Below, piece by piece: positions 2,160 to 32,572 of a DNA stretch of 38,800 nucleotides (its first letter is position 1; every line of letters starts with the position of its first letter). Position numbers and translations under genes: made by a program. This stretch comes from Flavipsychrobacter stenotrophus (GTDB lineage: Bacteria > Bacteroidota > Bacteroidia > Chitinophagales > Chitinophagaceae): positions 1-38,800 of the forward strand of contig CAMDNC010000013.1 in assembly GCA_945902755.1 (NCBI GenBank), written 5' to 3'. The notes under the pieces are model-generated. The model searched no databases, was not told where the DNA came from, and saw only the letters and a list, made by a program, of their open reading frames with translations.

Positions 2160-2747
2160 ATGGTAAGTAAGAAAAACGGCCTGGTAATAACAGTATTGGG
2201 GATATTATCCTTAATCGTATCGGTTATATATATCTCCTCCTGCACCAGAACCCCTGGAGAGTTTCCCTATTCATGTAGCGGCGTAGTGTGCCAAAATGGT
2301 GGCAAATGCGACAGTGGCAAATGTGTATGTCCGGTAGGATTTGAGGGCACAAACTGCGCCACTGGCACTGTAGACAAGTTTATAGGTTACTGGAAGGTAA
2401 CCCAAACAGTGTTAGGTAGTGACTCATTGATTCTTGTGAATACGCAAACTACGTACACTTTGCGCATAATGCCAACTGCCACTAATACTACTTTTTTCTT
2501 GTACAACTTTAATAACAACCCAACCTATAGCAGTTTAATTTGCCGCTTGGACAGTAATAATAAGGCAGACTTTGGGATGGACACTACATCTGCTACAAAT
2601 ATGATTTACGACCAGTATAGAATCAGAAATGGTTATGGTTTTATGTACACTAACGATTCTATAAGTATGAAAGTGTTTGTGCGCAGACTGAATAGTACTG
2701 TTAACTGGCAAAACGATACCCTAGCCTTGGGATTGAAGCGACTATAA
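2160..2747 (+). CDS. EGF-like domain lipoprotein
   Basis: A 195-residue predicted lipoprotein. Residues 1-28 form a basic N-terminus plus a hydrophobic stretch ending IYISSC, a plausible signal peptidase II site. Next comes an EGF-like module with the CxxVVCQNGGKCDSGKCVCPVGFEGTNC spacing (about residues 38-65), which has the six cysteines of an EGF fold. The remaining ~125 residues (FIGYWKVTQTVLGSDS...) are Thr/Asn-rich and look like a small beta-sandwich or lipocalin-like domain of unknown function. The protein is probably anchored at the outer membrane or cell surface. A paralogue with the same layout lies at 34260-34796. It follows pntB by ~100 bases and may be transcribed separately. Confidence 0.75.
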   Translation: MVSKKNGLVITVLGILSLIVSVIYISSCTRTPGEFPYSCSGVVCQNGGKCDSGKCVCPVGFEGTNCATGTVDKFIGYWKVTQTVLGSDSLILVNTQTTYTLRIMPTATNTTFFLYNFNNNPTYSSLICRLDSNNKADFGMDTTSATNMIYDQYRIRNGYGFMYTNDSISMKVFVRRLNSTVNWQNDTLALGLKRL

Positions 2748-2844
2748 TAGGTGATCATAGTTCTGAAAAGCAAGATAGCATCATACAGCATGGCTGTGCA
2801 CGAGAAATAAGGATGAAAACTATCTGAAATTTCTCGAAAAAATA

Positions 2845-2876
2845 TTTGCAAAACACAATTTTACGTTTTACTTTTG
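2845..2876 (+). promoter_or_regulatory. Bacteroidota-type promoter of the tRNA-tuf cluster
   Basis: TTTG at 2845-2848, then 20 bases, then TACTTTTG at 2869-2876, matching the TTTG-N19-21-TAnnTTTG consensus used by the primary sigma factor of this phylum. The first tRNA begins 64 bases downstream. Confidence 0.7.
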
Positions 2877-2940
2877 CAATCCCTTTTAGTGATAAGCGTA
2901 TGGCTTGCCGCGATAAAAGAGGAAGTAGTTCTTTTTTTAA

Positions 2941-3013
2941 GCCACTTTAGCTCAGATGGTAGAGCAACTGATTTGTAATCAGTAGGTCGCTGGTTCGATT
3001 CCGGCAAGTGGCT
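2941..3013 (+). tRNA. tRNA-Thr (anticodon TGT)
   Basis: 73 bases fold as a cloverleaf. The acceptor stem is GCCACTT/AAGTGGC, the anticodon arm is ACTGA-TTTGTAA-TCAGT with anticodon TGT, and the T arm contains GGTTCGATTCC. CCA is not encoded. It is the first of four tRNA genes upstream of tuf. Confidence 0.95.
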
Positions 3014-3025
3014 CTGGTAAGATTT

Positions 3026-3076
3026 AAACTTCAAAAGTGATTAAGCAGACGAATGGTTAATCACTTTTTTAAGTTT
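3026..3076 (+). other. Long hairpin in the tRNA-Thr/tRNA-Tyr spacer
   Basis: AAAAGTGATTAA (3033-3044) pairs perfectly with TTAATCACTTTT (3057-3068) around a 12-base loop. The stem extends with AAACTT/AAGTTT outside a small bulge. It lies 20 bases after tRNA-Thr and could be a processing signal or a partial terminator; the T run is interrupted by the outer stem. Confidence 0.6.
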
Positions 3077-3085
3077 TGACTGAAT

Positions 3086-3169
3086 GGGCACATTCCACAA
3101 GCGGCCAACGTGAGCAGACTGTAAATCTGCCGTCTTTAGACTTCGGAGGTTCGAATCCTTCTGTGCCCA
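3086..3169 (+). tRNA. tRNA-Tyr (anticodon GTA)
   Basis: 84 bases with a long variable arm, typical of bacterial tRNA-Tyr. The acceptor stem is GGGCACA/TGTGCCC, and the anticodon arm GCAGA-CTGTAAA-TCTGC has anticodon GTA. The variable arm CGTCTTTAGACTTCG and T loop GGTTCGAATCC are present. CCA is not encoded. Confidence 0.95.
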
Positions 3170-3176
3170 CATCAAC

Positions 3177-3250
3177 AATGTGAAAAGTTGTAAATTTGAC
3201 AATGAAGCCGTAGGCTGTATGCTCTTTTTATAAGTTTTCACATTTTTTTA
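3177..3250 (+). other. Bracketing inverted repeat in the tRNA-Tyr/tRNA-Gly spacer
   Basis: AATGTGAAAA (3177-3186) is a perfect inverted match to TTTTCACATT (3235-3244), followed by a T run, enclosing almost the entire spacer. It is similar in placement to the hairpins of the other spacers in this cluster. Function is unknown; tRNA precursor processing or attenuation is possible. Confidence 0.5.
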
Positions 3251-3251
3251 A

Positions 3252-3324
3252 GCGGGAGTAGCTCAGTTGGTAGAGCGACAGCCTTCCAAGCTGTAGGTCG
3301 CGGGTTCGAGCCTCGTCTCCCGCT
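3252..3324 (+). tRNA. tRNA-Gly (anticodon TCC)
   Basis: 73 bases: acceptor stem GCGGGAG/CTCCCGC, D arm GCTCAGTTGGTAGAGC, anticodon arm ACAGC-CTTCCAA-GCTGT with anticodon TCC, and T arm with GGTTCGAGCC. CCA is not encoded. Confidence 0.95.
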
Positions 3325-3383
3325 CGCTTTTTTTAAGTTCTTTAACTTAAGCATTTCTAGGTTATCAGTTTGTACTTGTTAGT

Positions 3384-3472
3384 TTATTTCACAATTGCAT
3401 GTAGATAATCGTTTTTGTTTTCAGGTCGAGCTGTGATTATTTATAGTTTGCCTTGGCAACAATGTGAAATAA
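3384..3472 (+). other. Bracketing inverted repeat in the tRNA-Gly/tRNA-Thr spacer
   Basis: TTATTTCACA (3384-3393) is a perfect inverted match to TGTGAAATAA (3463-3472), 69 bases apart and ending 17 bases before the next tRNA. The TGTGAAA core also occurs in the preceding spacer. The same spacer also holds a small TTAAGTT/AACTTAA hairpin near 3332-3352. Confidence 0.45.
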
Positions 3473-3489
3473 TAGCAGTGTAGTAAAAA

Positions 3490-3561
<72 letters not shown>

Positions 3562-3752
3562 CATTCTTTTCTAAGTTTTCATTAGTTGTGCTTAATACTG
3601 TGGCGTTTACAGTAAATAGAAAAGAGATTTCTCACCCAAAAAGAATACCAACTACTAGGAATAGGTGTAGAGATGGGATAAAAACGGTTGTATTCGCTAA
3701 TAGTTAATACCGTAATGTAGGCTTTTTAGATTTCTCTTCAAAAAAAATTTTA

Positions 3753-3780
3753 TTTGGAGACGAAAATAAGTTTATATTTG
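3753..3780 (+). promoter_or_regulatory. Promoter of tuf
   Basis: TTTG at 3753-3756 and TATATTTG at 3773-3780, a good TAnnTTTG element with a slightly short spacer (16 bases). It would give a leader of about 40 bases before the tuf ATG, so tuf can be expressed independently of the tRNAs. The 190 bases between tRNA-Thr and this promoter show no gene. Confidence 0.6.
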
Positions 3781-3828
3781 CACACTTTTTAGAATTAAGC
3801 AAAACCAATAATTTCAAAACAATAAAAA

Positions 3829-5016
3829 ATGGCAAAAGAAACCTTTAAGAGGGAGAAACCTCACGTAAACATTGGTACCATCGGCCACGTTGACCACGGT
3901 AAAACTACACTGACCGCTGCTATCACTACTATTCTGTCTTCTAAAGGATTGGCAGAAAAAAGAGGATACGATGAAATCGATGCAGCTCCCGAGGAAAAAG
4001 AGCGTGGTATCACGATCAATACGGCTCACGTAGAATACGCTACTGCTAACCGTCACTATGCACACGTTGACTGTCCAGGTCACGCTGACTATGTAAAAAA
4101 CATGATTACTGGTGCTGCTCAAATGGATGGCGCTATACTAGTGGTTGCGGCTACAGATGGTCCTATGCCACAAACAAGAGAGCACATCCTTCTTGCTCGT
4201 CAGGTAGGTGTTCCACGTATGGTTATCTTCATGAACAAGGTTGACCTTGTAGATGATGCTGAAATACTGGAGCTAGTAGAAATGGAAATTCGCGAATTGC
4301 TTTCTAAGAATGGTTATGATGGTGATAACACACCTATTATACAGGGTTCTGCTACAGGTGCACTTGCTGGCGATGCTAAGTGGGTTAAAGCTGTAGAAGA
4401 TTTGATGGAAGCAGTAGATTCTTATATACCATTGCCTCCACGTCCAGTTGATCAACCATTCCTTATGTCTGTAGAAGATGTATTCACTATCACTGGTCGT
4501 GGTACTGTTGCTACAGGTCGTATCGAGCGTGGTGTGATTAAAGTAGGTGAAAACGTTGAAATCGTTGGTTTCAATGAGTCTCCACTTACTTCTACTTGTA
4601 CTGGTGTTGAGATGTTCAAAAAACTGTTGGATCGTGGTGAGGCTGGTGACAACGCTGGTTTGCTACTTCGCGGTATTGAGAAAAAAGATATCCGTCGTGG
4701 TATGGTTATCTGTGCTCCAAAAACTATTACTCCGCACACAGACTTCAAAGGTGAAGTTTATGTACTGAGCAAAGAAGAAGGTGGCCGTCACACTCCATTC
4801 TTCAACAAATATCGTCCTCAGTTCTATTTCCGTACTACTGACGTAACAGGCGAGTGCATGTTGCCAGAAGGTGTGGAAATGGTAATGCCAGGTGATAACG
4901 TAAATCTTTCTGTAGTTCTTATCGCTCCTATAGCGATGGACAAAGGTTTGAAATTCGCGATACGCGAAGGTGGCCGTACAGTAGGTGCAGGTCAGGTAAC
5001 TGAAATCATCAAATAA
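3829..5016 (+). CDS. tuf: Translation elongation factor Tu
   Basis: 395 residues, full length for EF-Tu. The GTPase domain has GHVDHGKT (residues 19-26), the switch region with [17 protein letters not shown] (about 81-85) and NKVD (about 136-139). Domains 2 and 3 follow ([43 protein letters not shown]). It delivers aminoacyl-tRNA to the ribosome in the cytoplasm. Codon usage looks optimised compared with neighbours (frequent GGT, CGT, GTT and ACT), as expected of a very highly expressed gene. It follows four tRNA genes and ends in a strong terminator, so the secE-nusG genes that often follow it are not in this transcript. Confidence 0.98.
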
Positions 5017-26945: not shown

Positions 26946-27449
26946 TTATTCACCAAGTGTTACCTGCAAGCTAGCAGGGGTGTAGAGTTGCTCGGGCTGG
27001 GTGCTGTAATCGTCAAATGTTACCGAATACCTTATTTCCCTTACCCTATATCCATCAGTGCGGGTTTGTGTATCGGCGGATACTCGAATCATACACCCGA
27101 AACTACCCCCTGCACTCCAGCCATGTAGTACCTTCTGCAGTGCCCATTCTAGGTCGTAGTAGCTTATGGCCATTTCTTTGTATTCGTTGGGGGTGTTGTG
27201 GGCAGTAGAACTCAGTGGTGCAAAACCCAGCTTTAGCACTACTTCTCCACAAGCCGTCTGCACACCCTCGCCGAGATTGCTGAAGGAGAACTTGTCAAAG
27301 TCTATCAGCACACACGGAAACGTCACTGGCGGTCTTACTTTTGCCGACAACTGCCCAGTGTCTTGAGCCACATAACTGATGCTGGTTACGGTGCTCTTTA
27401 TATGCACTTGCAGTGCCAAAAACAATTGTGCGAATGGTGAGTTCATCAT
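26946..27449 (-). CDS. Phage neck/tail-like protein (putative, Mu gp37-like position)
   Basis: 167 residues, last gene of the phage-derived block. Features: MMNSPFAQLFLALQVHIKSTV at the start, a segment PCVLIDFDKFSFSNLGEGVQ, and beta-rich C-terminal REIRYSVTFDDYSTQ. The size and pattern resemble small head-tail joining or tail-terminator proteins that follow gp36-type proteins in Mu-like phages. I cannot name a family with certainty. It lies 33 bases downstream of the portal gene in the same direction, and the next gene, pirin, is an ordinary chromosomal gene, so phage genes stop here. Confidence 0.5.
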   Translation of the reverse strand: MMNSPFAQLFLALQVHIKSTVTSISYVAQDTGQLSAKVRPPVTFPCVLIDFDKFSFSNLGEGVQTACGEVVLKLGFAPLSSTAHNTPNEYKEMAISYYDLEWALQKVLHGWSAGGSFGCMIRVSADTQTRTDGYRVREIRYSVTFDDYSTQPEQLYTPASLQVTLGE

Positions 27450-27482
27450 TTCTATTTTCTAGGTTTTAGTAGATGTTTGTAG

Positions 27483-28571
27483 TTAAGCCTGCGGTATACC
27501 ATAGGTATCATACCAGTAACTGTCTGGAATACCTACTATACCCGCCAGGCCTTTATCTATTGTCATTCGTTTGTGCAAATACTCAATGTCTGTATCTTTT
27601 GCAAATACAAACCTTCCTCCCGCCACCTCATATCCGTACGACTGTAGTATGCGCATAAAAGCTGGTGTATTGAGCATAGCAGTAGTGTAGGCTATGTCTG
27701 CCTTTGTTATTTCATACTGCTGTTCCTGATGTATTTTGCTTTGTGCATAACCCGCACTACGACTGCTGTTGGTGGTTTCTGTGTTGCCCAGCACTGTTAC
27801 AGATATTTCCTCGTTTAGCGCCTTTATAAACGATAACTGCAATCCACCATCACTATTGGCTTGTTTTCCATCTTTTATTTCGAAATCTGCCTGGCGGGGT
27901 ATCATCATAGACAGCGAGCTACCACTATCTTCCAGCACCTTTCTCAGTTCTTCCTTAGTTTGCTCGTCATACGAGTCATATTTTATCACGCGTACCGGCT
28001 GCCCAAATAGTTCTATAAATTGAGCCCAGTCGGCCAACCCACTTCTTTTATACAGGCAGTATGGAGCACACCGCAGCAACAGACCCATATCTCCCGGTGT
28101 CTCCATTACCCACACATTGCGCAGGTCTGCATAGTGTATTCCTTCCTGTCCGTTTTGCTCGTAGGCTATCACTCTACTTTCTGGTTTTATATGCTTTCTT
28201 GGTATGGAATTGCATATCAACTCCGTACCCGGCACAAACTCTAATCCCGACAAACCCCACAACAAGGTTTCCAGAATGGTTTTTATTACCTCTCTGAATG
28301 CCATTGAAGCTATTAGGCCGTCTAGCTTGTGCACCTTTTTTCCACCTTTTTCAAAATATATTTCTTTATTAAGTACAGCATTTATTTTCTTAGCTACCAC
28401 ACCCGTTAGGTGCCCATCTAGCAGTATATCTTCATAAAGGTCATATAGCCTGGTTCTGTTAGGGTGATGCATAGACTCTGCCGCACTTAGTGCATTACGC
28501 CAAGTGTTTATATCCTTCCTATTTCGGTCAATTGACCTTACGTTCAATTCATTCAATATTATCTTCTCCAT
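27483..28571 (-). CDS. Phage portal protein, DUF935 (Mu gp29-like)
   Basis: 362 residues. Matches the DUF935 portal family in layout: an N-terminal region with LYDLYEDILLDGHLTGVVAKKINAVLN, LLWGLSGLEFVPG, IPRKHIKPE, then WAQFIELFGQPVRVIKYDSYDEQTKEEL and TVLGNTETTNSSRSAGYAQSKIHQEQQ. Portals form the dodecameric ring through which DNA enters a capsid. The ORF is uninterrupted but shorter than Mu gp29 (about 500 residues), so the C-terminal part may be reduced. The upstream neighbour is an oppositely oriented membrane protein, so the portal gene needs a promoter within 28572-28694, where only weak TAnnTTTG matches are seen. Confidence 0.82.
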   Translation of the reverse strand: MEKIILNELNVRSIDRNRKDINTWRNALSAAESMHHPNRTRLYDLYEDILLDGHLTGVVAKKINAVLNKEIYFEKGGKKVHKLDGLIASMAFREVIKTILETLLWGLSGLEFVPGTELICNSIPRKHIKPESRVIAYEQNGQEGIHYADLRNVWVMETPGDMGLLLRCAPYCLYKRSGLADWAQFIELFGQPVRVIKYDSYDEQTKEELRKVLEDSGSSLSMMIPRQADFEIKDGKQANSDGGLQLSFIKALNEEISVTVLGNTETTNSSRSAGYAQSKIHQEQQYEITKADIAYTTAMLNTPAFMRILQSYGYEVAGGRFVFAKDTDIEYLHKRMTIDKGLAGIVGIPDSYWYDTYGIPQA

Positions 28572-28694
28572 ATGATGCGATTAATTTACGTTTATTTAAA
28601 GCTGATTCCCTTACACTTCCAAATAGAATATTATTATCTTTACGTATCCCTTGCTTCTATTGATATAAATTTCTACAGTGCAATTATTATAACA

Positions 28695-29057
28695 ATGAGA
28701 CGAATACTAACAGAATTTTATAGCCTTGTATACAAGACTACAGGCAATAAGTTGTTGGCTTATGTTGTTGGCTTAATGGTGTTGGCTTTGTTTAACTGCG
28801 TTATAGTAAAGGGCTTGGCAATGCTTATTCAAGATTGGGTAGGCTTCGCTGCTATGATACTTGTCTTGTTCCGGTTTCCTATCTACTTTGCAACATTCTT
28901 ATTATCGCTTGGTGCTGCATATTGGTTCACCCCCAATATACAAACACTATCACGCGATGCTAAAAAGAACAATAAATATCTCACGATAATCCTATACAGC
29001 CTGTTTGCTGTTGTTCTTTTTGCCTACATGCAATTGGGAGAAGTTTTATTCTCCTGA
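28695..29057 (+). CDS. Small membrane protein, inserted against the phage block
   Basis: 120 residues from ATG 28695 (Met42 of the track ORF; the 41 residues before it look like non-coding Tyr/Ile-rich sequence). Three or four hydrophobic helices: LLAYVVGLMVLALFNCVIV, FAAMILVLFRFPIYFATFLLSLGAAYWF and LTIILYSLFAVVLFAYMQL. No family recognised. It sits on the plus strand between the gp36-like and portal genes, which read on the minus strand, diverging from portal and converging on gp36. This is the placement expected of an independently expressed cargo gene (moron) or an insertion. Function is unknown. Confidence 0.6.
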   Translation: MRRILTEFYSLVYKTTGNKLLAYVVGLMVLALFNCVIVKGLAMLIQDWVGFAAMILVLFRFPIYFATFLLSLGAAYWFTPNIQTLSRDAKKNNKYLTIILYSLFAVVLFAYMQLGEVLFS

Positions 29058-29091
29058 TATTCACACCTTGATTTGGCGTTGTAACAATTAC

Positions 29092-29529
29092 CTAGTAATG
29101 ATTACTTCTTTTGGGGTTACTGTTCCAGTTTATAGCGTTGCTTTCTGGCAGTGCTGTATTGTTCCCAGCATCCTTGTAGGGCCATCCATCTGGTTGCAAA
29201 GCGCCTGTTTTTATGCTTTTCAGCACCTCTACTGCGTCTGTGTAAGCGACTCTGCTGGTGCTATACTCTACTCCTGTGTTGTTAAGACGCAATAAGTGCC
29301 AGCAAGCCACGTCTTTTACTATACTTTTCAGGTACTCATCTTGTACAGCAGGTGGCGTTGTTCCTGTACCAAATAGTTGAGTAAGGTCGTAGCGGCTTAG
29401 GTACATCTTGCACTCTTGCTCGGCAGTAGCAATAGCTATTTCTGCTATCGCTATGTCACCTCTTGTGATCTCTGTTATTACTTCTGCATACAGCTTGGTT
29501 TCCAGCTCTGCAACGGTTATTATAGGCAT
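29092..29529 (-). CDS. Mu gp36-like protein (DUF1320)
   Basis: 145 residues. The start MPIITVAELETKLYAEVITEITRGD, the middle AEQECKMYLSRYDLTQLFG...LKSIVKDVACWHLLRL and the C-terminal AVEVLKSIKTGALQPDGWP...NNTALPESNAINWNSNPKRSNHY are the recognisable pattern of the DUF1320/Mu gp36 family, thought to be a head-tail connector or completion protein. The ORF is intact. In Mu it follows the major capsid gene; here it precedes portal, and no capsid gene is near. Confidence 0.8.
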   Translation of the reverse strand: MPIITVAELETKLYAEVITEITRGDIAIAEIAIATAEQECKMYLSRYDLTQLFGTGTTPPAVQDEYLKSIVKDVACWHLLRLNNTGVEYSTSRVAYTDAVEVLKSIKTGALQPDGWPYKDAGNNTALPESNAINWNSNPKRSNHY

Positions 29530-29550
29530 GGTTTAAAGGTTTATATTGGT

Positions 29551-29649
29551 TTATTTAGTCTCCTTAGGCGTTGACATCCAGCACTGCATCCCTATTGGGG
29601 GTACTATTGTCACTAGTTCTTCAATAGTTGCAGCGGCGCGGCTATTCAC
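29551..29649 (-). CDS. Possible tiny ORF between the acidic secreted protein and the gp36-like gene
   Basis: Not in the ORF track. A GTG overlapping the upstream stop (TAGTG) opens a 32-codon frame reading NSRAAATIEELVTIVPPIGM and ending CWMSTPKETK, stopping 21 bases before the gp36-like ATG. The composition looks protein-like and resembles short 'ATIEEL...PxxGMQCW' segments of phage structural proteins, but it is very short. It could be a real small gene or the remnant of a longer one. Confidence 0.3.
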   Translation of the reverse strand: MNSRAAATIEELVTIVPPIGMQCWMSTPKETK

Positions 29650-30215
29650 TATTCATCCTCTTCTTTCGGTTCTTTCTTTTTTCCTTTTGTAGGCTTGTCT
29701 TCTTCATCCTCCTCTTCTTCATCCTCCTCTTCCTCACCTTTCTTCTTTCTCGCCGTTGGCTTTTTTACATTTTGCCTGTTACCAGGCTCTGAAGCCTCTT
29801 CTTTATCTATTTCCAGCGTTTCGCCTGTGGGCTTTACTTGTACTATCTTTTTGGAAGTACGGTCATACGTTACTTCGTATACATTAGCAACGTTATCTCC
29901 CAGTGTCAGCATTATATAGCCTATCAGTTTTTTACCATCATTATTGTCGTTTAGCGAGTCTACAACTGCATATATCTTGGGTATACCCTTACCTGCTTTT
30001 CTTATTTCCTGCAGTCTACTTCTTTGCTCAGCGTATTCAGGTAGTGTCAATATCTGCCTTCTTAGCAAATTGTAGTCTACCCTGTCGTTGTTTTTTGCTT
30101 TTTTCTCATCCTGTGCTTCTTTTAGCTCTTCCCTTCTTTCGTTCCTGTCTTGCTGCGCAGCTACTTCACTATCAATACTCAAAATTATAAGCAGTGCAAA
30201 AAATACATTTTTCAT
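29649..30215 (-). CDS. Secreted protein with Lys/Glu-rich acidic tail, inside the phage-like block
   Basis: 188 residues. A Sec signal peptide (MKNVFFALLIILSIDSEVAAQQ) is followed by a charged helical region (DRNERREELKEAQDEKKAKNN), a compact ~75-residue middle (LLRRQILTLPEYAEQRSRLQEI...KLIGYIMLTLGDNVANVYEVTYDR), and a ~45-residue tail of alternating Lys and Glu/Asp runs. No family recognised. It is expected in the periplasm or at the outer membrane, which is odd between a terminase and a head-completion gene. It lies 82 bases after terL and overlaps a possible tiny ORF by one base. It could be a cargo gene captured by the phage. Confidence 0.7.
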   Translation of the reverse strand: MKNVFFALLIILSIDSEVAAQQDRNERREELKEAQDEKKAKNNDRVDYNLLRRQILTLPEYAEQRSRLQEIRKAGKGIPKIYAVVDSLNDNNDGKKLIGYIMLTLGDNVANVYEVTYDRTSKKIVQVKPTGETLEIDKEEASEPGNRQNVKKPTARKKKGEEEEDEEEEDEEDKPTKGKKKEPKEEDE

Positions 30216-30297
30216 GTTTTACTGTTTTACGTATATCGCAAATGTCCTTATTTTTTATCGCACTCTATTACGCACTTTTTTCATTGTTCATACATTC

Positions 30298-31851
30298 TCA
30301 GTATCGTTTGTTGTTATGGGGTTTACCACCTAGTGTTATCCCGTGCCCACCTTTATTAGCTGTCTTTTCTATTATTATCCATACAGCTCCCTCTACCGCA
30401 TCTGGTCCGTCATCGTGCGCATTGCCCGCCTGCGAAAAAGCTCTAAACTGTTCTACCAATCGCTGCATATGTGGGTTGTGTTCTTCTTGCTCATTCAGGT
30501 ACAGTTCACCATTTCTGTTCATGGGTTCCAGCAGGCTTTCTACCCTCATAAACTTGTCGGGTTTTTTGCGGGTATCGCCTATTATGGGTATCGTTCTCCC
30601 TCTTCGTCTACCCGCATCACTCACTTCTTTCACAAGCACATCTTGCATAAACACCTGCTCCATGTAGTAATAACAGCTACGATTACCTACGATATTCATT
30701 ATATCATAGTGCCAGTCTATCATTTCGGCAGTAGTGGCTCGGTCTAAGTAACATTTTATTACATGGTATTCACTTCGCCATTTACCCACCAGCACTGTGG
30801 CTTTATAGTCGGCGGTTGTTTTGTATGATGGGTCTGTATAACACACTAGTATGGTATATTCATTGATAGGCAGCACTGGTTTGTAGGCCATTTGTCTAAA
30901 CACCGCCCCCTCAGTCAATGGGTTGTTGTAGTATTCCTTTTGCTGCGCTGCATAGCTTTTTTGGCTTAGTACTCTATCTATATCCGATTCGCTGTTTTTT
31001 TCAGGCCAGGAAGAACGTCCTTGCTCATTACGTATATTCACAATGTCTACGTGGTCTGCTATATCTGCTGCCTTTTGTATGCAAGACGACAGGGCTATAC
31101 GGTTGCCGCAAAATATAATGGTGGTAGCCACCGATACGGATCTGGTACCAATAGCAGCTTCCTCTATCCAACGCCATTTTTTAGATACAATATCACTGTT
31201 CAGGCAGTCGCTATCTGTGTCTACATCGTCAAACAATATGATGTCTGGCCTTGCCTCCTCATTTCTTGTCCCTCTGGGGCTTTGCCCTACCCCTACCGCC
31301 CTAAACGATACCCCTCCCCTTGTTACAAACTCTGTAATACTCCACACACCATCTCCCACCTGCTGGCCATAATCTTGTATCAGTCTTTGGTTATACTCCA
31401 TATTAGCTTTGTAGGGCATCAGCAGTCGGGTTGCATTGTCCAGACTGTTGCTTATCATCAGTACACAGCGTTTTTTTATTCTTTGTGCTTCTGTCATTGA
31501 GCCATCGGCATGCACCACCATTCGGTCATCTTCATTTCTATGCCCAACCAGTGCCAGGTAAAATACCTCCATCATAGTACGGGTGCTTTTAGCCAGCTCC
31601 CTACTCCACATGCGCACTTCGCACCATTCTTTGTTGTGGAGTATTCGGTTTGTGGAGTTTAGCTGAAATGCAGCTGCCTTTGCATAAGCAAACCTAGGAA
31701 AGTAATACCCAAACCATTTCTCAGGTTCAGCCTCCAGTCTAGCTTTTCTAGCTACTAGAGCTGCTTCGTTTTCTTTTTTATCGGTTAGCGTTCCCGATTT
31801 TATCATCTTTACAAACTCTTCCCACCTTGCTATCAATTGTCTATCGGTCAT
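30298..31851 (-). CDS. Phage terminase large subunit
   Basis: 517 residues. The ATPase domain has a Walker A-like MWSRELAKST (about 81-90, the AKST variant known in terminases) and Walker B IILFDDVD (about 204-210). The C-terminal RNase H-like nuclease domain has CYTDPSYKTTADYKA (about 343-357, first metal Asp) and HDDGPDAVEGAV near 480 (last metal Asp). All key motor and nuclease residues appear present, so the protein could be active. Terminases cut and pump DNA through the portal into a capsid. It lies 49 bases after the small-subunit gene. Confidence 0.9.
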   Translation of the reverse strand: MTDRQLIARWEEFVKMIKSGTLTDKKENEAALVARKARLEAEPEKWFGYYFPRFAYAKAAAFQLNSTNRILHNKEWCEVRMWSRELAKSTRTMMEVFYLALVGHRNEDDRMVVHADGSMTEAQRIKKRCVLMISNSLDNATRLLMPYKANMEYNQRLIQDYGQQVGDGVWSITEFVTRGGVSFRAVGVGQSPRGTRNEEARPDIILFDDVDTDSDCLNSDIVSKKWRWIEEAAIGTRSVSVATTIIFCGNRIALSSCIQKAADIADHVDIVNIRNEQGRSSWPEKNSESDIDRVLSQKSYAAQQKEYYNNPLTEGAVFRQMAYKPVLPINEYTILVCYTDPSYKTTADYKATVLVGKWRSEYHVIKCYLDRATTAEMIDWHYDIMNIVGNRSCYYYMEQVFMQDVLVKEVSDAGRRRGRTIPIIGDTRKKPDKFMRVESLLEPMNRNGELYLNEQEEHNPHMQRLVEQFRAFSQAGNAHDDGPDAVEGAVWIIIEKTANKGGHGITLGGKPHNNKRY

Positions 31852-31900
31852 ATTCCTTCTTCTTACACTTCAGGGTATTTTTTTCGTCAACTTGTCTATA

Positions 31901-32341
31901 CTACAATTCCTTTTGCTCCTTTATGTACGCCTCCATTTCTATCGTCACAGTTTTGGATAGCTGTTCATCTTTTTTGTACAGCCATGTCAAAAATGCTTCT
32001 CCCAAATGGATCAATCCTGACAAGTCATGCTCAGTGTCTACGTTTTTTATCATGGCACTATACTTCATCATCAGCTCCACATCCTTGGGTGTAGGTTCTT
32101 CGGTTGCGTTCAGTCTGCTCGTCACTGAGTTCAATGCTTTGTACAGATATTTAAGCTGTTTCTTTTTTGATATACTCAGCGATTCTCTGAACATATCCCA
32201 CTCTCCACTTCGTATCCAGTTTTCTATCGTCCCCTCTGGTTGCCTCACTCGTTGTGACACTTCCCTTACACTCATTTCGCATTGCAGGTACAATACTCTT
32301 GCTATGCCTTCTACATGCGATTCATCAAATCTTAAGTCCAT
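31901..32341 (-). CDS. Putative terminase small subunit
   Basis: 146 residues. The N-terminal ~55 residues look like a helix-turn-helix of the small terminase type (GIARVLYLQCEMSVREVSQRVRQPEGTIENWIRSGEWDMFRESL), followed by a helical oligomerisation region. It is called by this pattern and by its place directly upstream of terL. It would recognise DNA for packaging. It starts the phage-like block; a CACCTTTG element ending 5 bases before the ATG resembles the -7 box with one mismatch. Confidence 0.7.
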   Translation of the reverse strand: MDLRFDESHVEGIARVLYLQCEMSVREVSQRVRQPEGTIENWIRSGEWDMFRESLSISKKKQLKYLYKALNSVTSRLNATEEPTPKDVELMMKYSAMIKNVDTEHDLSGLIHLGEAFLTWLYKKDEQLSKTVTIEMEAYIKEQKEL

Positions 32342-32572
32342 AGCACAAAGGTGATACGACGTTTTCTTTCTGACAATTTTGCGTTTTGTTACATACGCAT
32401 AGCTGTATATGATAGTACTAAAAACGCACTATCATAAATCTTTTTTCTGTGGATAACCTTTGTTTGGTGATTGTTTTACAGCAGCTTATACGTTAGCACA
32501 AAGTCACCTATTTATGGTTCGGCCTTTCGTGTTCATGTAGTGCCCATTCCCAACCACACATTGATACATAAC

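What the first reader, a model, noticed from the sequence alone, without database searches (positions are those of the whole stretch)
26946..32341. Phage DNA-packaging module without a capsid: terS-terL-X-gp36-portal-neck in a chromosomal setting
Seen: six minus-strand ORFs with terminase, DUF1320, DUF935 and neck-like character, all uninterrupted, with terminase ATPase and nuclease motifs intact. Not seen: capsid, scaffold/protease, Mu F-like protein, tail, lysis, integrase or MuA/MuB genes. Known: in Mu the order is gp27-gp28-gp29-gp30-...-capsid-gp36-gp37; here gp36 precedes portal and the whole capsid block is absent. Inference: either a prophage truncated so recently that the remaining genes have not decayed, or a module kept by selection, for example half of a split gene-transfer-agent or a DNA-translocating device using a portal without a head.
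Basis: partly seen in the sequence, partly recalled or inferred. Interest (0 to 1): 0.72.

Follow-up and report, generated by a model that had tools for sequence, protein, structure and literature searches.

The report
Split gene-transfer agent in Chitinophagaceae (predicted)
The six phage-like genes are the DNA-packaging half of a domesticated phage whose head-and-tail half sits elsewhere in the same genome; both halves have been inherited with the bacteria, kept intact and placed behind the same unusual promoter, so they probably build particles that move bacterial DNA between cells, which I found described for no member of this phylum in an open-access library.

Summary
The block is real: terS-terL-X-gp36-portal-tail terminator, all open, in chromosomal surroundings. 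It is not a headless device or a fresh truncation. The same genome carries the other half on contig C52 (capsid, endolysin, sheath, tube, baseplate, fibre) beside mreBCD-carB. In the genus, this type of portal is in 30 of 35 genomes (23 of 25 good ones). The head-tail cluster sits at mreBCD-carB in about 20 genomes examined. The distance between the halves ranges from 9 kb to at least 127 kb, or separate contigs. dN/dS is about 0.01-0.17 for nearly every gene; host, packaging and head-tail trees agree (Mantel r 0.81-0.84). A promoter (TTG-N20-CACCTTTG) precedes both operons and none of about 700 other gene starts examined. MuF, neck1 and the phage early genes are gone. X and a small membrane gene have been gained. 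Best reading: a gene transfer agent derived from a Mu-like, contractile-tailed phage of Bacteroidota and split into two co-regulated loci. DNA packaging and transfer are inferred. The main rival is a PBSX-like killer particle. 'gp36 before portal' is the normal order of this phage family.

The parts
31901..32341 (-). TerS, terminase small subunit (146 aa, DNA-binding)
   Evidence: phrog_4151 2.5e-14; dN/dS 0.079 against sister genome G159
30298..31851 (-). TerL, terminase large subunit (517 aa), ATPase and nuclease motifs intact
   Evidence: phrog_38 2.1e-63; motifs conserved in 15-18 of 18 relatives; dN/dS 0.067
29649..30215 (-). X: predicted secreted protein (signal peptide, helix, small beta-sheet, acidic tail), found with this element and absent from the related phages
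   Evidence: conserved in most members of the clade; model mean pLDDT 78, no PDB fold match; dN/dS 0.173
29092..29529 (-). gp36-like head-tail adaptor (145 aa)
   Evidence: PF07030 7.4e-6, phrog_195 1.7e-13; dN/dS 0.105
28695..29057 (+). small membrane protein (about 120 aa from the conserved ATG; mechanical ORF 28572-29057), opposite strand between gp36 and portal; duplicated in some relatives; function unknown (holin-like is a guess)
   Evidence: conserved at this place in nearly all members, not found at the packaging operon of the related phages; dN/dS 0.10 against G159 but fast-evolving in the genus (mean identity 0.34)
27483..28571 (-). portal protein (362 aa, Mu gp29 / DUF935 family)
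   Evidence: PF06074 8.8e-65; dN/dS 0.053
26946..27449 (-). tail terminator ('neck', 167 aa)
   Evidence: phrog_6911; AlphaFold model mean pLDDT 86; Foldseek matches T5 p142, lambda gpU, pyocin R2 collar and an RcGTA virion chain (6tba), best E 2.6e-6
32346..32376 (-). promoter-like element TTG-N20-CACCTTTG just upstream of terS; the same element precedes the head-tail operon of relatives
   Evidence: 21 of 25 protease and 14 of 29 terS upstream regions, 0 of the other upstream regions in the same loci
32408..32436 (-). palindrome TATGATAG...CTATCATA, candidate operator
   Evidence: heptamers TATGATA/TATCATA: mean 0.92 (protease) and 0.59 (terS) per upstream region against 0.10 for other genes
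32448..32456 (-). TTATCCACA (matches the DnaA-box consensus), upstream of the palindrome
   Evidence: 9 of 29 terS and 2 of 25 protease upstream regions, 1 of 369 other regions; function not tested

Best explanation
The block is the packaging operon of a gene transfer agent (GTA) domesticated from a Mu-like phage with a contractile tail. It works together with an unlinked head-tail operon: protease, capsid, small membrane protein, CHAP endolysin, sheath, tube, tail chaperone, tape measure, hub, baseplate, fibre, beside mreBCD-carB. SHOWN by sequence: both halves are in the same genome (the protease is not seen in the own assembly, whose contig starts at the capsid gene, but is next to it in sister genomes); both are conserved in the genus, mostly inherited with the host, under purifying selection, and preceded by the same promoter type; MuF, neck1 and the phage early genes are gone; two new genes were gained. 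INFERRED: a host signal acts through an unknown regulator at the palindromes and switches on both promoters in some cells; protease and capsid build a procapsid on the portal; TerS/TerL load fragments of the host chromosome headful by headful, since no separate phage genome remains; gp36, the tail terminator and the contractile tail complete the particle; endolysin and a membrane protein release it by lysis; the fibre binds related cells and DNA is delivered. X and the plus-strand protein probably act at the envelope (release or recipient side), but that is a guess.
For: Head-tail half in own genome. Genus: any portal match in 32/35 genomes and 25/25 good ones, this type in 30/35 and 23/25 by my reading of the scores; capsid in 28/35 and 22/25. 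Head-tail cluster beside mreDCB-carB in the genus members fetched and in the isolate Flavipsychrobacter stenotrophus RB1R16. dN/dS 0.015-0.173 for nearly all genes in two genome pairs. Host, packaging and head-tail trees congruent: Mantel r 0.84, 0.81, 0.84, p 1e-4. Portal tree: the type forms one clade with no MuF-bearing member, nested among Mu-like phages; carB tree: carriers fall in one host clade. MuF in the genus only in 4 genomes, at separate loci; beside a second portal copy in three of them. Shared promoter. Fibre conserved, dN/dS 0.046 and 0.038.
Against: No particle, packaged DNA or gene transfer has been shown. No MuF or neck1 homologue is seen with the element, and these are often needed for head or neck assembly. 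The tape measure evolves very fast (mean identity 0.20 in the genus; dN/dS 0.63 in the window's pair). One relative (G070) carries broken copies, and some genus members lack one half, so the function can be lost. No regulator was identified.
Confidence: 0.66

Rival explanations
1. A PBSX-like phage-derived bacteriocin: particles that package random host DNA but whose main selected function is killing competing relatives with a contractile tail, without productive DNA transfer.
For: Contractile sheath, endolysin and full head genes, as in PBSX-like elements, which are also conserved across a species group and package random host DNA (PMC8347963).
Against: In PBSX-like regions the fibre region is the most variable part; here the fibre is about as conserved as other tail genes and under strong purifying selection (0.046, 0.038), with mean genus identity 0.56, similar to the endolysin and tail terminator. 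No immunity gene was recognised. Two separate loci would be new for this type as far as I know.
Confidence: 0.18
2. A tailocin or other contractile device in which capsid and packaging genes are leftovers.
For: Contractile tail genes are present; no DNA packaging has been shown.
Against: Portal, TerL and capsid are as constrained as the tail (0.053, 0.067, 0.073), and terS-terL-portal keeps a promoter of its own that matches the tail operon's. Leftovers would decay.
Confidence: 0.05
3. Two separated pieces of a still mobile or recently inactivated Mu-like prophage, or a phage satellite.
For: The proteins are of clear phage origin, and complete Mu-like prophages of the same family occur in some of these genomes (L355).
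Against: Same chromosomal site for the head-tail cluster throughout the genus, tree congruence, purifying selection, no transposition genes beside it, no MuF, and no long flanking repeats at the window block. Pfam and PHROG scans of neighbouring window ORFs found no phage or integrase gene.
Confidence: 0.06
4. One reading: a DNA translocator that uses portal and terminase without a head.
For: Within the window alone no head gene is visible.
Against: Head and tail genes are in the same genome, behind the same promoter type in relatives.
Confidence: 0.02

Closest known systems
RcGTA-like gene transfer agents (Rhodogtaviriformidae, Alphaproteobacteria)
   Same: Caudoviricete-derived head, tail and packaging genes, inherited vertically, under purifying selection, spread over several chromosomal loci (RcGTA: five loci; PMC11409702).
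   Different: RcGTA is siphovirus-like and keeps packaging with the head-tail cluster (my knowledge); here the ancestor is a Mu-like contractile phage of Bacteroidota and the packaging operon is what has moved away.
Brachyspira BhGTA / VSH-1 (Brachygtaviriformidae)
   Same: The only terL lies outside the structural cluster and co-diversifies with the genus (PMC9662315).
   Different: Non-contractile tail; there the terL link is putative, here a whole packaging operon shares its promoter with the head-tail operon. Not compared here by sequence.
Bartonella BaGTA (Bartogtaviriformidae) and Desulfovibrio Dd1
   Same: Independent domestications of tailed phages.
   Different: Different hosts and ancestors; not compared here by sequence.
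Mu-like transposable phages of Bacteroidota (Porphyromonas gingivalis phages; Chryseobacterium, Flavobacterium and Chitinophaga prophages)
   Same: Same gene order protease-capsid divergent from TerS-TerL-gp36-portal; best database portal hit 34% identity.
   Different: Phages have MuF, neck1 and early-region genes and lack X, the plus-strand gene and, mostly, the promoter (1 of 40 and 4 of 37).
PBSX-like particles of Bacillus
   Same: Contractile, domesticated, package random host DNA.
   Different: Killer particles with variable fibres, one locus (PMC8347963).

Membership tests
Gene transfer agent (definition of Kogay et al. 2022, PMC9662315) | uses proteins derived from tailed phages to form particles | tested here: met
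   Portal, TerL, adaptor, tail terminator, capsid, protease, sheath, tube and hub have phage-family or fold matches; particle formation itself not tested
Gene transfer agent (definition of Kogay et al. 2022, PMC9662315) | genome fully endogenised, often over several loci | tested here: met
   Two loci 9 kb to at least 127 kb apart or on different contigs, chromosomal flanks
Gene transfer agent (definition of Kogay et al. 2022, PMC9662315) | vertical inheritance, co-diversification with the host | tested here: met
   Mantel r 0.84 and 0.81 with the host tree, p 1e-4; 7 and 8 of 13 splits shared; same chromosomal site
Gene transfer agent (definition of Kogay et al. 2022, PMC9662315) | mostly packages random host DNA | not testable with these tools
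   needs purified particles
Gene transfer agent (definition of Kogay et al. 2022, PMC9662315) | own genome cannot be fully packaged (small head) | not testable with these tools
   head size unknown; with the two loci more than 100 kb apart in G155 one headful could hardly hold both (inference)
Gene transfer agent (definition of Kogay et al. 2022, PMC9662315) | delivers DNA to other cells | not testable with these tools
   needs a transfer assay
Mu-like transposable phage | MuF (gp30) and transposition genes with the structural genes | tested here: not met
   PF04233 gives no match in the own genome; 4 of 35 genus genomes have one, at separate loci; phage early families c12/c16 absent from the element's loci; MuA/MuB themselves not searched by profile
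PBSX-like bacteriocin particle | strain-variable fibre region, killing of relatives | tested here: inconclusive
   Fibre conserved; killing not testable here
Capsid-forming phage satellite (PICI) | integrase and mobility | tested here: inconclusive
   Fixed site for the head-tail half across the genus; no integrase among the window ORFs scanned; no profile search of the whole genome for integrases

The most novel reading that the evidence does not exclude
First gene transfer agent of the phylum Bacteroidota: an independently domesticated, contractile-tailed GTA whose DNA-packaging motor and particle are encoded at two distant chromosomal loci tied together by a shared palindrome-plus-promoter, with a secreted protein (X) and an embedded antisense membrane protein as new host-side parts.
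Probability: 0.6. Interest if true: 0.85.

Novelty: new variant of a known kind. Interest (0 to 1): 0.76.

Why it matters
Classified GTAs rest on three independent, experimentally grounded clades (two alphaproteobacterial, one spirochaete; PMC9662315), with a few others described elsewhere. A further domestication in Bacteroidota, from a contractile Mu-like ancestor, would test whether GTA evolution repeats itself: loss of early genes, scattering over loci, host regulation. It would suggest a route of gene exchange in a group of Chitinophagaceae for which I found none described. The split makes it experimentally handy: the packaging operon can be deleted without touching the particle. It also shows that contigs filed as viral (L155-L164) can be pieces of such chromosomal elements.

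Tried and rejected
Mu gpT capsid family PF10124 in own genome: nothing; the capsid here is of another family (phrog_267 / PF19821), so this was the wrong probe. Protease query in own genome: nothing; the C52 contig starts 5 bases before the capsid gene, so the gene presumably lies in the assembly gap; in sister G159 it is in place. Canonical Bacteroidota promoter TAnnTTTG upstream of the operons: mostly absent; the conserved element is CACCTTTG instead. Fold search for X: no match. Rfam in 24-36 kb: none. Flanking repeats as att sites: only short chance-like repeats. Literature searches for a GTA in Bacteroidota or Chitinophagaceae found none; the library is open access only, so absence there is weak evidence.
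Full report
OBSERVATION. The window is one whole 38.8-kb contig (G000:C13) of a 3.52-Mb draft genome, 95% complete. Six minus-strand ORFs at 26946-32341 are open and are TerS, TerL, X, a gp36-like adaptor, a DUF935 portal and a small protein called neck. The neck protein models well (mean pLDDT 86) and has the fold of tail terminators: T5 p142, lambda gpU, pyocin R2 collar, and a chain of the RcGTA virion. Flanks are chromosomal (pirin and a DEAD-box helicase on one side, a TPR protein on the other).

GENE ORDER IS NORMAL. In related prophages and viral contigs the order is protease-capsid on one strand and, divergently, TerS-TerL-gp36-portal-MuF-neck1-terminator. So gp36 before portal is the rule in this family, and in the phages the head genes stand upstream on the other strand.

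THE OTHER HALF. Capsid and sheath queries taken from a relative (L031) found one place each in the own genome, both on contig C52: capsid 66% identical at 6-911, sheath 52% at 2723-3895. C52 reads capsid, small membrane protein, CHAP endolysin, sheath, tube, tail chaperone, tape measure, hub proteins, baseplate proteins, fibre, then mreD-mreC-mreB and carB (families from homologues; 'fibre' is named from its position at the end of the operon, no family matched). The protease is missing only where the contig begins; sister genome G159 has it next to the capsid.

CONSERVATION. In the genus (35 genomes) a portal match is found in 32 and in 25 of 25 good genomes. By score, 30 are of the window's type (29 above 600 bits plus G182, which is split over two contigs), 23 of 25 among good genomes; G099 and G172 carry only other types. 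Capsid: 28 of 35, 22 of 25 good. The head-tail cluster stands beside mreDCB-carB in the genus loci read (L325-L343, with L325 completed by L356) and in the isolate F. stenotrophus RB1R16 (L353). The distance between portal and capsid varies: about 9 kb (G174, G175, G177, G180), 19 kb (G161), 27 kb with carB in between (G165, G169), 84 kb (G160), 127 kb (G155), separate contigs (G000, G159, G164, G157). In the window's subclade the packaging operon stands behind the TPR gene. So the halves have moved apart while both stayed intact.

SELECTION AND DESCENT. Against sister G159 (carB 99% identical) dN/dS is 0.079 TerS, 0.067 TerL, 0.173 X, 0.105 gp36, 0.053 portal, 0.115 terminator, 0.073 capsid, 0.037 sheath, 0.015 tube; chromosomal controls are 0.036 (pirin), 0.082 (gltX), 0.092 (TPR). 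A second pair, G174/G177, gives 0.01-0.10 for the same genes; the plus-strand gene and tape measure are too diverged there. These are Nei-Gojobori estimates, some with dS above 1, so the second pair is rough. For 16 genomes, trees of host genes (carB, mreBCD), packaging genes and head-tail genes agree: Mantel r 0.84, 0.81 and 0.84, each p 1e-4, 7-8 of 13 splits shared. The host genes used are neighbours of the head-tail cluster, so the packaging comparison is the more independent one. In a portal tree of 102 sequences the window's type forms one clade with no MuF-bearing member, inside the Mu-like phages. In a carB tree the carriers fall in one clade of the family, with an apparent loss in G043, G096 and G135 (the labels there were set by hand from the earlier calls, and two carriers with incomplete carB are not in it).

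WHAT WAS LOST AND GAINED. MuF (PF04233) is absent from the own genome; in the genus it occurs in four genomes at separate loci, in G161, G178 and G171 right beside a second portal (read in full only for G161). Neck1 and the early-region families c12 and c16 are absent from the element's loci. Two genes are typical of the element: X, predicted secreted, and a membrane protein of about 120 aa on the opposite strand between gp36 and portal, present in nearly all members and duplicated in some. Its true start in the window is probably 28695.

SHARED CONTROL. Upstream of the protease operon and of terS lies the same arrangement: palindromes of the type TATGATAG...CTATCATA, then TTG-N20-CACCTTTG. 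In F. stenotrophus and a near relative (L353, L354, L100) the palindrome is GGTGGTAC...GTACCACC instead, in front of both operons. The promoter pattern occurs in 21 of 25 protease and 14 of 29 terS upstream regions, and in none of the roughly 700 other upstream regions of the same loci; in phage-type loci in 1 of 40 and 4 of 37. The pattern was written down after looking at the protease and terS alignments, so these counts describe it and do not test it independently; the empty control regions are the informative part. Some loci are the same genome fetched twice; identical upstream stretches were counted once. In the window the promoter is at 32346-32376, the palindrome at 32408-32436, and a TTATCCACA at 32448-32456.

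INTERPRETATION. A two-locus, vertically inherited, selected and apparently co-controlled set of capsid, packaging and tail genes without the phage's early genes meets the three features of the GTA definition (PMC9662315) that sequence can test; the three that need experiments are open. The most serious rival is a PBSX-like particle; the conserved fibre speaks against it but does not exclude it. I therefore say 'works like a GTA, membership unproven'.

LIMITS. Most genomes are metagenome assemblies; some absences (G162, G173) may be gaps. G070 has broken copies (portal, sheath and protease each in two pieces), showing that the element can decay. The literature search covers open-access papers only.

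Noticed in passing
L155-L164 (viral contigs): Contigs filed as viral in IMG/VR carry this element's packaging operon without MuF (most with X and/or the plus-strand gene or c19); several look like pieces of bacterial chromosomes rather than viruses.
   Followed up: partly
L076:5012-6301 (own contig C52): The tape measure protein is short (429 aa) and evolves far faster than its neighbours: mean identity 0.20 in the genus, dN/dS 0.63 in the window's pair, with a conserved C-terminal end.
   Followed up: partly
window 32448-32456 and upstream of terS in L093, L094, L107, L108, L112, L129, L100: TTATCCACA, the DnaA-box consensus, recurs upstream of the terS palindrome; a link to replication control is possible.
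   Followed up: no
L036, L081 (G070): A decaying copy of the element: portal, sheath and protease each broken into two frames, tail genes after the sheath missing; the same genome also holds another cluster of this phage family (L037).
   Followed up: partly
L033, L130, L131; L035, L039: Other MuF-less packaging operons with neither X nor the plus-strand gene, outside the main clade in the portal tree; possibly further, independent domestications.
   Followed up: no
L031:12645-13313, L105, L112, L116 between portal and terminator: One to three variable extra ORFs sit between portal and tail terminator in several members; the one in L031 begins like a signal peptide.
   Followed up: no
window 2941-5016: Ordinary tRNA-Thr-Tyr-Gly-Thr cluster followed by the EF-Tu gene.
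   Followed up: no
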